Assembly (NCBI GenBank): GCA_019637155.1
Contig: JAHBWE010000007.1
Coordinates: forward strand, 1 to 64,000
Length of the DNA: 64,000 bases
Direction: 5' to 3'
Source of the DNA: Labilithrix sp.
GTDB taxonomy: Bacteria; Myxococcota_A; Polyangia; Polyangiales; Polyangiaceae
Shown: positions 49,449 through 52,317 of the stretch, in pieces
How positions within the stretch are numbered: the first letter of the stretch is position 1
How the letters are laid out: every line of letters begins with the position of its first letter
Notes under the pieces: generated by a model
What the model was told of the DNA's origin: nothing
The model's database searches: none
Seen by the model: only the letters and a program-made list of their open reading frames with translations
Translations under genes and position numbers: made by a program

Positions 49449-50534
49449 TTACTCCCCATCGTCCTTCGGCGGCGGCGGGACGGTCGAGGGCCGGAGCGTG
49501 TTCGAGATCGGGAGCGGGGTCGGCAGCGGCGTCGCGAGCGTCGGCGCCGGCTGCATCGGCCGCGTCGCGGTCGGATCCGTCACCCGCTGCGCCGGCACGG
49601 AGTCCTCCGGGATGATCGAGGAGCGGCGCGTGACCGGCGCGATGACCTCCGCCGGCGGCAACGTCACGCGGACGGGGCCCGACGAGGGCACGAGCGTGCT
49701 CCGCCCCTTCTGCGCCGCGGCCGCGCCGCCCTTCTTCTTCGCGCGCGCGCGCTGCCCGAAGAGGCCGAGGAGCGCCTGCTTGAGCGACGCGCCGTCGAGG
49801 TTCGGGACGATGTTGCCGTTGAAGCAGAAGCTGATCGTGCCGCGCTCCTCCGAGACGACGACGACGACGGCGTCCGTCTCCTCCGTGATGCCGAGCGCCG
49901 CGCGGTGACGCGAGCCGAGCGACTTGTCGAGGACCTTCACGTCCGGCATCGGGAAGAAGACGCCGGCCTTCGCGATGCGGAGGTTGCGGATGACGACCGC
50001 GCCGTCGTGCAGCTTGTTGAGCCCCTCCGGGATGAACATGCTGACGAGGAGCTCGCGCTGGACCTGCGCGTCCACGGTCGTGCCCTGACCGACGACGAAC
50101 TCCTCGAGGTTCGCGTCCTGCTCGAAGCAGATGAGCGCGCCCATGCGATGGCGCGCGAGCTCGGTCGCCGCCGCGACGACCTCGTCGATGACGCGCGTCT
50201 CCTGCTGCCGCGACATCCCGGTGAAGAAGGCGCGCGATCCGACGCGCATGAGGCCGCGGCGGATGTCGTTCTGGAACACGACGACGACGATGAGGATGAC
50301 GCTCGAGAGGAGCGACGAGAGCAGGTTGAAGAGGGTGAGGAAGCCGGCCCACTTCGCGACGACGTAGACGAGGAAGATGACGCCGAGGCCGGTGCCCATC
50401 TGCATCGCGCGCGTGCCGCGGAGGACGAGCAGCGCGCGGTAGACGACGTACGCGACGATGAGGAGGTCGGCGACGTCGATCGCCGCTTGCGTCAGCGACC
50501 TTGCAGCGAAGAGATGCCGGAGGCCGTCCAGCAT
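49449..50534 (-). CDS. cdaA: Diadenylate cyclase CdaA (cyclic di-AMP synthase)
   Basis: A 361-residue membrane enzyme that joins two ATP into cyclic di-AMP. Three N-terminal membrane helices (about 18-37, 47-66, 70-88) precede the DAC domain (about 105-245) with catalytic DGAVVIR (DGA 177-179) and SRHRAALG (RHR 209-211). After it comes a Pro/Thr-rich tail of about 100 residues (KKKGGAAAAQ to the end) not found in Firmicutes CdaA. The ATG overlaps the folP stop (TGATG). It is third-to-last before the kinase and HAD genes. Confidence 0.95.
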   Translation of the reverse strand: MLDGLRHLFAARSLTQAAIDVADLLIVAYVVYRALLVLRGTRAMQMGTGLGVIFLVYVVAKWAGFLTLFNLLSSLLSSVILIVVVVFQNDIRRGLMRVGSRAFFTGMSRQQETRVIDEVVAAATELARHRMGALICFEQDANLEEFVVGQGTTVDAQVQRELLVSMFIPEGLNKLHDGAVVIRNLRIAKAGVFFPMPDVKVLDKSLGSRHRAALGITEETDAVVVVVSEERGTISFCFNGNIVPNLDGASLKQALLGLFGQRARAKKKGGAAAAQKGRSTLVPSSGPVRVTLPPAEVIAPVTRRSSIIPEDSVPAQRVTDPTATRPMQPAPTLATPLPTPLPISNTLRPSTVPPPPKDDGE

Positions 50535-51397
50535 CAGATCTTCCTCCGCGGGGTGCCGAGGACGTTGTCGAGATCGATCGCCTGGCGCGTCGCGCGCACG
50601 GCGTGGACGCGGAGGACACGGACGCCGGCGTGAACGGCGTGGATCGCGGCGGCGATGGACGCGCCGTCGCGATCGGCGGCCGCGGCGTCGCGATCGATGA
50701 GGGTGAGGAACGACTTGCGGCTCGCGCCGACGAGGACCGGCACGCCGTCGAGCTTCTCGACGAGGACGCGCGCGCGGCGGAGCAGCTCGAGGCTGTGGCG
50801 CGCCGTCTTCGAGAAGCCGAGGCCGGGATCCATGACGAGCGCCGAGCGCGGGACCCCTCGCGCGATCGCGCGCTCCGCCGCGCGCTCCCAGTCGACGAGG
50901 ACGTCCTTCACGACGTCGCCGTACTCCTGGAGCGACGCGCGCATTCCGACCGCGGGCCGGTAATGCGAGAGGATGAGCGCCGCGCCGCTGCCGCCCGCGA
51001 CGTCCGCGAGCCCCTCGTCCGTGAGGAGCGACACGTCGTTGATCGCGTGCGCGCCGCAGTCGAGCGCGGCCGCGGCGACCTTCGGGCTCGCCGTGTCGAT
51101 CGAGACGCACGCGCCGCGCGCGGCGGCGTGACGGATCGCGGGGAGCACGCGCTCGAGCTGCTCCTCCGCCGGCACCGGCTTGCTGCCCGGCCGCGTCGAC
51201 TCGCCGCCGACGTCGATGATGTCCGCGCCCTCGGCGATGAGCTCGTCGATACGCGCCGCGGCGTCCGACGCCGCGAGGTAGCGACCGCCGTCGGAGAAGG
51301 AGTCCGGCGTGACGTTGCAGATCCCCATCAGGGCTGCACCGCGGCGTGCCACGGCCCCTCGGATCACGTCGGCGAATTTCTCGCTCCGTGCCGCCAT
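50534..51397 (-). CDS. folP: Dihydropteroate synthase
   Basis: This cytoplasmic TIM-barrel enzyme of folate synthesis joins pterin pyrophosphate to p-aminobenzoate. At 287 residues it has family length. Motifs: MGICNVTPDSFSDGG, DIIDVGGESTRPG, AHAINDVS, MDPGLGFSKT, VLVGASRKSF and a C-terminal RVHAVRATRQA for RVHDV. ASRKSF and the loop 2 residues are typical and lack obvious sulfonamide-resistance inserts. The ATG is preceded directly by AAGGAG, closer than ideal. It heads the operon leading to cdaA; the element with inverted repeats lies 49 bp upstream. Confidence 0.95.
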   Translation of the reverse strand: MAARSEKFADVIRGAVARRGAALMGICNVTPDSFSDGGRYLAASDAAARIDELIAEGADIIDVGGESTRPGSKPVPAEEQLERVLPAIRHAAARGACVSIDTASPKVAAAALDCGAHAINDVSLLTDEGLADVAGGSGAALILSHYRPAVGMRASLQEYGDVVKDVLVDWERAAERAIARGVPRSALVMDPGLGFSKTARHSLELLRRARVLVEKLDGVPVLVGASRKSFLTLIDRDAAAADRDGASIAAAIHAVHAGVRVLRVHAVRATRQAIDLDNVLGTPRRKI

Positions 51398-51446
51398 CTC
51401 CTTAGGAAAGGCGTAGCAAGATGCACGCCCCCAAACAAGGTTCTCT

Positions 51447-51848
51447 CTCAACGTCAGGGGCTTCGCCCCCGACACCCCCACCCCGCGAACACGACCCGCC
51501 GCGCTTTGCGCGGCGGGTTGCTTTGCAACCGCTGTGGCGGTCGCGTTCGCGGGGCCCCTCGAAGGGGCCGCCACTTTGCTGCCGCTTGCTGCCAGCGCTT
51601 CGTGCCTCTTGCTGCCGGCGCTTGGTGCCGCTTTGCTGCCAGCGCTTGGTGCCGCTTTGCTGCCAGCGCTTGGTGCCGCCGCTCGAAGCCAATGCTCGCT
51701 CTTCGTGCTTGGGGCGCGGCGGGCTGTTAGTGCGGGCGCCTCGACGGGGCCCCAGAAGCGGCCGCGAAAGCGGGCGCGAAGCGCCCCGAGCGCGCAGCGC
51801 GAGGGCCGTGTCTGGGGTGGGGTGTCGGGGCGAAGCCCCGACGTTGAG
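51447..51848. repeat. 402-bp palindrome-rich element with terminal inverted repeats
   Basis: The arms 51447-51485 and 51814-51848 are inverted copies that match over about 35 bases with three single-base insertions. Each arm holds its own hairpin, GGGGC-TTC-GCCCC (51457-51469) and TCGGGGC-GAA-GCCCCGA (51825-51841). Between them are more stems with three-base loops: 51495-51517 (10 bp), 51516-51530, 51553-51569 and 51772-51786, plus a 24-bp tandem array. There is no transposase or other convincing gene. The right arm lies inside the end of the marR gene. Size and ends fit a non-autonomous mobile element; target duplications were not evident. Confidence 0.75.
51588..51680. repeat. 24-bp tandem repeats inside the palindrome-rich element
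   Basis: About four units of 23-24 bp (cores GCTGCCAGCGCTTGGTGCCG) run head to tail at 51588-51680, with a partial unit before. The two central units differ at one base. The unit length is a multiple of three, but no supported gene reads through them. Confidence 0.85.
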
Positions 51849-52317
51849 TAAGAGCTATGCGCGTTAGTTTGTGTAGCAACTTTAGGTGGCGGGTGAGGTC
51901 GTCGTTGAGGGCGGTGGCGATGGCGGCCTGGGCTTTTTTCCAGATCGGGTAGCCGCGGGTGAGGGTGGCGCGGCCGGAGCGCGTGAGGCGGACGAGGCGT
52001 TCGCGGCGGTCGGAGGGGCTGGGCTCGAGCTTGAGGAGGCCGAGGCGCTCGAGCACGGCGAGGTTGCGTGAGAGCGAGGACTGATCGAGCACGAGCATCT
52101 CGGCGAGCTCGCCGATCGGCATCGGACGATCGGCCGACCATGCGAGCGCTGCGAGGACGGTGAACTGCGTCGCCTTCAGGCCGATCTCGTCGAAGTGGGC
52201 GTCGAAGAGCTGCGTCATCGCGCGGGAGGCACGGCGGAGGTTGTGACACGCGCACTGGAGGCTCATCTCCGCGCAGTCGTCGACGCTCGGCGGCAGCTCC
52301 TTCGGCATGCGTGACAC
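51727..52317 (-). CDS. MarR-family regulator with element-derived C-terminus
   Basis: A 196-residue winged-helix regulator. Residues about 20-150 are a MarR domain: LKATQFTVLAALAW, GELAEMLVLDQSSLSRNLAVLERLGLL (recognition helix) and SDRRERLVRLT (wing). The last 40 residues (from about 157) are Pro/Arg-rich and come from inside the inverted-repeat element, so the native end was probably replaced. MarR proteins normally end near residue 150-160, so function may be kept. Start: GTG with GAGG 6 nt upstream; an ATG lies three codons in. Divergent from the acyl-CoA dehydrogenase across 56 bp. Confidence 0.85.
   Translation of the reverse strand: MSRMPKELPPSVDDCAEMSLQCACHNLRRASRAMTQLFDAHFDEIGLKATQFTVLAALAWSADRPMPIGELAEMLVLDQSSLSRNLAVLERLGLLKLEPSPSDRRERLVRLTRSGRATLTRGYPIWKKAQAAIATALNDDLTRHLKLLHKLTRIALTQRRGFAPTPHPRHGPRAARSGRFAPAFAAASGAPSRRPH

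What the first reader, a model, noticed from the sequence alone, without database searches (positions are those of the whole stretch)
51447..51848. 402-bp palindrome-rich element with inverted ends and a 24-bp tandem core
Inverted ends of about 35 bp, each with its own hairpin, bound a region with at least six stems that all have three-base loops (TTC, TTT, TTT, CGA, GAA, GAA) and a 24-bp tandem array. There is no transposase. This is unlike a simple MITE and might be a mobilised structured RNA or hairpin cassette.
Basis: seen in the sequence. Interest (0 to 1): 0.65.

Follow-up and report, generated by a model that had tools for sequence, protein, structure and literature searches.

The report
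Mobile cloverleaf-shaped hairpin repeat family
The 402-bp element is really two facing copies of a 100-letter DNA repeat that folds like a cloverleaf, has spread to roughly 250 places in this one species, and is placed just past the ends of genes or even in-frame inside genes.

Summary
The palindromes are real, but the 402-bp block is a composite. Its left arm (51448-51554, minus strand) and right arm (51750-51847, plus strand) are copies of subfamilies B and A of one ~100-nt repeat; the 24-bp array between them was found nowhere else sampled. Each unit folds as an outer stem holding three hairpins, plus a 3'-terminal hairpin. Thirteen pairs covary, loops vary about five times more than stems, and mismatches are G.T rather than A.C on the plus strand. 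The genome holds about 250 copies; none were found in 37 relatives or in the GTDB pattern scan. The site is empty in six congeners (MarR-folP); a copy read as 35 in-frame codons of error-prone DNA polymerase is absent from all nine relatives readable there. No target duplication. The 3' end sits 0-15 nt past a stop codon in 34 of 60 copies facing one. All seven close inverted pairs are A/B heterodimers with 3' hairpins outward. Hairpin variants reassort almost freely between copies. Best reading: a new species-restricted, non-autonomous mobile palindromic repeat, behaving like REP and Rickettsia palindromic elements but with a cloverleaf architecture. No mobilising enzyme was identified.

The parts
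51746..51848 (+). Right arm: full copy of subfamily A of the ~100-nt cloverleaf repeat (model match 51750-51847), GGGGCCCCAGA...GACGTTGA(G)
   Evidence: CM match 114.6 bits; 99-100% identical dispersed copies
51447..51554 (-). Left arm: full copy of subfamily B, opposite orientation (3' hairpin outward)
   Evidence: CM match 79.4 bits; 94-97% identical copies at C12, C7 and C4
51555..51571 (-).
   Evidence: sequence; similar GGGGCCCCCGAAGGGGCCCC in another B copy, L005
51576..51679 (.). 24-bp tandem array, 4.4 copies, spacer between the two units; not part of the repeat family
   Evidence: TRF; no second copy in about 600 kb of own-genome loci
51750..51817 (+). Cloverleaf part of the A unit: outer stem CCCCAGA..TCTGGGG and CGGCC..GGCCG enclosing three hairpins
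   Evidence: fold; covariation
51764..51771 (+). Hairpin 1, GC-GAAA-GC; loop highly variable among copies
51772..51786 (+). Hairpin 2, GGGCGC-GAA-GCGCCC; stem covaries (GGGCGC/GGTCGC/GGTTGC), loop nearly always GNA
51787..51803 (+). Hairpin 3, CGAGCGC-GCA-GCGCGAG (CTCGCGC..GCGCGAG in other copies); loop highly variable
51824..51842 (+). 3'-terminal hairpin GTCGGGGC-GAA-GCCCCGAC, followed by the end motif GTTGA
51850..52317 (-). MarR-type regulator whose reading frame now runs on into the A copy (ORF 51727-52317)
   Evidence: orthologues in congeners end before folP without the element
50534..51400 (-). folP (dihydropteroate synthase), the other flanking gene; gene name from sequence inspection, synteny tested

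Best explanation
The finding is an A/B inverted pair of a new, species-restricted family of non-autonomous mobile palindromic repeats. SHOWN: about 250 dispersed units of ~100 nt; a conserved cloverleaf plus 3' hairpin with compensatory changes; plus-strand bias of the wobble pairs; empty sites in congeners at two loci; no target-site duplication; the 3' end placed 0-15 nt past stop codons or, in about 18 cases, read in-frame inside genes; head-to-tail tandems; inverted pairs only as A/B heterodimers. INFERRED: the plus strand is recognised as a folded single strand by a trans-acting nuclease/transposase that joins the element to new sites without duplicating target bases, most plausibly an HUH (Y1)-type enzyme. 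Survivors are found where damage is least: just past stop codons, or in-frame in protein loops, which the repeat tolerates because it is about 35 codons long and has almost no stop codons. A/A inverted pairs would form near-perfect 200-bp palindromes and are probably removed, leaving only A/B pairs such as this one. Copies exchange hairpin modules by short-tract conversion or template switching.
For: Copy number: CM search gave 149 full-length matches plus one truncated copy, capped at 150; core-pattern count 267 against 14 for the reversed control. Species restriction: 0 CM matches in 37 relatives; only one chance pattern match in other GTDB genomes. Structure: 13 pairs with changes on both sides against 3.3 expected, 99.3% of cells paired, slid controls 32-56%. 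Minor mismatches G.T 18 vs A.C 2; mean minor-allele frequency 0.025 in stems vs 0.118 unpaired. Mobility: empty MarR-folP site in six congeners; 35-aa insert in DnaE2 absent from all nine relatives readable across the site, eight congeners and one other-family genome. No TSD in 114 isolated copies. Docking: 34/60 within 15 nt of a stop at the 3' end vs 5/67 at the 5' end, Fisher p = 1.4e-9. Pairing: 7/7 close opposite pairs are head-head A/B heterodimers; 17 tandems all A/A.
Against: No enzyme was linked to the family: none of six HUH/Y1 genes in the genome is flanked by full copies; the nearest match is a partial one about 3.8 kb away. Docking past stop codons could reflect a host function or target choice rather than survival. 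The head-head count (7) is small. Gene calls come from my own codon-usage script, not an annotation. DNA-level relatives in unsampled sister strains cannot be excluded.
Confidence: 0.8

Rival explanations
1. It is a REP/REPIN family in the strict sense, mobilised by a resident RAYT (TnpA_REP, HUH-Y1) transposase.
For: High copy number, palindromes, extragenic placement <20 bp from ORF 3' ends, head-head heterodimers and in-frame intragenic copies are all reported for REPs (PMC3733652). Six Y1-type genes are in the genome; the one read in full shows an HxH motif (HLH) and a downstream tyrosine.
Against: No GTAG foot; a CGTC is present but its GTC is base-paired. The unit is ~100 nt and multi-branched, not a 20-40 bp single hairpin. 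No Y1 gene is flanked by full copies. The Y1 hit was below the Pfam cut-off and reads Y-ILF-NA rather than the class signature Y---NP (PMC6006769). Diverged Y1 genes occur in congeners that lack the repeat.
Confidence: 0.25
2. It is a functional 3'-UTR RNA element (transcription terminator, RNA stabiliser or processing site) kept by selection at gene ends and spread as a useful module.
For: 34 of 60 copies that face a stop codon start 0-15 nt after it; strong covariation.
Against: The docked gene transcribes the minus strand, whereas the conserved wobble pairs are on the plus strand. No U-tract follows the hairpin. Many copies lie away from stop codons or inside ORFs. The family is absent from close relatives with the same genes. 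No Rfam family matches.
Confidence: 0.2
3. The units spread through an RNA intermediate (reverse transcription of a discrete ~100-nt structured RNA, SINE-like).
For: A discrete structured unit, no TSD, and some 5'-truncated copies with intact 3' ends next to full copies.
Against: Truncated copies sit in tandem with full copies and look like slippage; 3'-truncated ones also occur (L141). No reverse transcriptase link was sought.
Confidence: 0.06

Closest known systems
REP / BIME / REPIN elements (GTAG- and CGTC-tagged; PMC3733652, PMC3116915)
   Same: Hundreds of palindromic copies, species-restricted subfamilies, placed close to ORF 3' ends, head-head heterodimers and tandems, occasional in-frame intragenic copies, stem covariation
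   Different: ~100-nt cloverleaf plus terminal hairpin instead of one 20-40 bp hairpin; no unpaired GTAG/CGTC tag; no linked RAYT
Rickettsia palindromic elements (RPE; as described in PMC3733652)
   Same: Palindromic mobile repeats inserted in-frame inside functional protein genes
   Different: Different sequence and host; mostly intergenic here; multi-branched cloverleaf
MITEs such as ERIC, NEMIS, RUP
   Same: Non-autonomous ~100-nt structured repeats next to genes
   Different: No terminal inverted repeats within a unit and no target-site duplication
IS200/IS605 family ends (HUH-Y1, single-strand transposition)
   Same: Hairpins on one strand, no target duplication expected
   Different: No tnpA in the unit, no fixed tetranucleotide target seen; mobilising enzyme not identified

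Membership tests
REP (GTAG or CGTC super-families) | 20-40 bp single palindrome | tested here: not met
   ~100-nt unit with five stem regions
REP (GTAG or CGTC super-families) | Unpaired GTAG or CGTC tag at one end | tested here: not met
   End reads TCAACGTC on the minus strand, but the GTC pairs with GAC in the terminal hairpin
REP (GTAG or CGTC super-families) | High copy number, extragenic, close to ORF 3' ends | tested here: met
REP / REPIN mobilised by RAYT | RAYT gene flanked by the repeats | tested here: not met
   Six Y1 genes examined, no full copy in their windows
Palindromic elements inserted in protein genes (RPE-like behaviour) | In-frame insertion inside conserved genes, absent from orthologues | tested here: met
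   DnaE2: 35-aa insert absent from all nine readable relatives; about 17 further in-frame cases, orthologues not checked
MITE | Terminal inverted repeats | tested here: not met
   Unit ends GGGGCCCCAGA / GACGTTGA are not inverted copies
MITE | Target-site duplication | tested here: not met
   114 isolated copies, no convincing excess of matches between flanks
Known structured RNA family | Rfam match | tested here: not met
   Two matches with E below 1, both outside the element and below the gathering score
HUH-mediated single-strand element | Strand-specific recognition and cleavage by an HUH enzyme | not testable with these tools
   Only indirect: G.T vs A.C bias on the plus strand

The most novel reading that the evidence does not exclude
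A new class of non-autonomous element whose unit of recognition is a four-way-junction cloverleaf of single-stranded DNA, and whose copies behave as a recombining population: individual hairpin modules only 10-30 nt apart are near linkage equilibrium (76 distinct combinations in 92 copies), implying hairpin-by-hairpin conversion or template switching between copies genome-wide.
Probability: 0.25. Interest if true: 0.75.

Novelty: new variant of a known kind. Interest (0 to 1): 0.57.

Why it matters
It adds a cloverleaf-shaped element to a field in which small bacterial repeats are mostly single hairpins or terminal-inverted-repeat MITEs. About 250 copies, two empty sites, intragenic insertions with intact frames and near-free reassortment of hairpin modules make open questions testable in one genome: how enzyme-less repeats move, why they sit just past stop codons, and how repeat copies exchange sequence.

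Tried and rejected
402-bp block as one mobile unit: rejected, only this locus has that arrangement and the arms are independent copies. Composite transposon with cargo between inverted copies (C9 1.1 kb, C14 2 kb): the intervals hold ordinary host-type genes (an OmpA-like gene at C9). Target-site duplication: no convincing signal. RAYT flanked by repeats: not found. Rfam: nothing. Relatives by DNA or covariance model: only short chance matches in GC-rich coding DNA. Viral contigs: none. Replication-strand bias: neighbouring copies on a contig agree in orientation no more than chance (57/103 vs 53 expected). Integron attC-like end motifs: considered, no such core-site architecture seen (not formally tested). 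First attempt at counting wobble pairs by regex parsed too few copies and was replaced by the model alignment. Papers on similar repeats in myxobacteria or Myxococcus: none in the library.

Full report
WHAT IS THERE. The sequence at 51447-51848 contains the inverted ends, the hairpins and the 24-bp array described. A whole-genome comparison (window = contig C7 of a 10.1-Mb, 46-contig genome) shows that the two ends are members of one dispersed repeat family. The right arm matches about 45 places at 94-100% identity. The left arm belongs to a second subfamily (B), about 76% identical to A, with its own copies at 94-97%. The 24-bp array has no second occurrence in the roughly 600 kb of own-genome loci compared.

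THE UNIT. Aligning 49 copies with flanks shows where similarity stops: GGGGCCCCAGA at one end and GACGTTGA at the other. The plus strand folds as CCCCAGA/TCTGGGG and CGGCC/GGCCG stems enclosing three hairpins, then a fourth hairpin GTCGGGGC-GAA-GCCCCGAC and the tail GTTGA. On 122 model-aligned copies, 99.3% of pair cells are standard pairs, 13 pairs have changes on both sides (3.3 expected from shuffles), and slid controls pair only 32-56%. Such alignments lean towards the model, but the compensatory sets are plain in the raw list (GGGCGC/GCGCCC, GGTCGC/GCGACC, GGTTGC/GCAACC). Minor variants are about five times commoner in unpaired than in paired columns. Minor mismatches are G.T 18 times and A.C twice on the plus strand, besides one pair that is G.T in nearly all copies. 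The structure is therefore conserved on the plus strand.

COPY NUMBER AND RANGE. The core pattern occurs 267 times against 14 for its reversed control, so about 250 copies. None is found in 37 relatives, 11 of them congeners. The pattern scan of GTDB r220 gives one isolated Streptomyces match and of viral contigs none; records of the window's own genome are left out of those scans.

MOBILITY. The MarR-folP neighbourhood is kept in six congeners (with the acyl-CoA-dehydrogenase-like gene also present in five of them), and none has the element between MarR and folP. In a second case (L126, error-prone DNA polymerase) the unit is a clean 35-residue in-frame insert in a loop of variable length, absent from all nine relatives that could be read across the site: eight congeners and one genome of another family. 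No duplication of target bases is detectable.

PLACEMENT. With genes called by a codon-usage script trained on this genome, 60 copies have a gene stop facing their 3' end, and 34 of these lie 0-15 nt beyond the stop (30 within 10 nt). At the 5' end only 5 of 67 do (Fisher p = 1.4e-9). The spacer is pyrimidine-rich before TCAACGTCGGGG. About 18 copies are read in-frame inside genes or extend them: protein kinase (between DFG and the SPE-like motif), LpxB, ComEC, an ArsB/citrate-type transporter, a HAD hydrolase, and C-terminal extensions of a carbonic anhydrase and of the window's MarR. The minus-strand frames of the unit are all open. I could not test whether frame-breaking intragenic copies are under-represented, because the gene caller favours in-frame cases.

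ARRANGEMENT. Within 750 bp, 17 same-direction neighbours are all A/A, mostly at 104-114-nt spacing. The 7 opposite neighbours are all head-head (3' hairpins outward) and all A/B, although B is only 15 of 113 classified units (p about 3e-5). The window element is one of these. A likely reason is that near-identical inverted pairs are unstable palindromes; the same argument is made for REP heterodimers (PMC3733652).

MODULE SHUFFLING. Among 92 parsed copies there are 76 different combinations of loop and stem variants. Mutual information between modules is close to the shuffled value for most pairs, with clear exceptions (h2-h3, h3-l3) and a few borderline ones; four-gamete violations are common. 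Recurrent mutation of 3-4-nt loops may contribute, so conversion between copies is an inference.

ENZYME. PF01797 gives one sub-threshold hit. Searching with that protein reveals six diverged family members in this genome, and related genes in several congeners. None is flanked by full copies of the repeat; the nearest match is a partial one about 3.8 kb away. The mobilising activity is therefore unknown. An HUH enzyme is my preferred guess only because of strand-specific structure and lack of target duplication.

COMPARISON. In behaviour the family is closest to REPs and Rickettsia palindromic elements (PMC3733652): abundance, position near ORF ends, head-head heterodimers, intragenic in-frame copies. 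It fails the REP definitions of size, single hairpin and unpaired tag, and the MITE definitions of terminal inverted repeats and target duplication. I file it as a new variant of the bacterial palindromic-repeat kind, not as a member of either family.

Noticed in passing
L168 (C20:165710), L200, L201, L202, L203, L204: Six diverged HUH/Y1 (RAYT-like) genes share an upstream motif like TAAATAATGCTATGCTGA; several are flanked by their own unrelated tandem repeats.
   Followed up: partly
L126 1-2340 (+), residues about 498-533: 35-residue repeat-encoded insert inside error-prone DNA polymerase DnaE2, absent from all nine relatives readable across the site.
   Followed up: yes
L136 676-2298 (-), residues about 232-267: Repeat inserted in-frame in the activation segment of a Ser/Thr protein kinase, between DFG and the SPE-like motif; the kinase may be inactive or altered.
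   Followed up: partly
L016 1182-2516 (+): Repeat read in-frame near the start of an OmpA-like lipoprotein, upstream of the hydrophobic part of its signal peptide.
   Followed up: no
L178 (congener G003), MarR-folP gap: The otherwise empty site holds a different decayed tandem repeat (AATACCTGCCAAAATACCTGC...).
   Followed up: no
window about 51411-51426 and the same place in L177-L182: Conserved leader motif CTTGCTACG just upstream of folP in the congeners.
   Followed up: no
A3 alignment of 92 parsed copies: Hairpin-loop variants of the repeat are close to linkage equilibrium between copies.
   Followed up: partly
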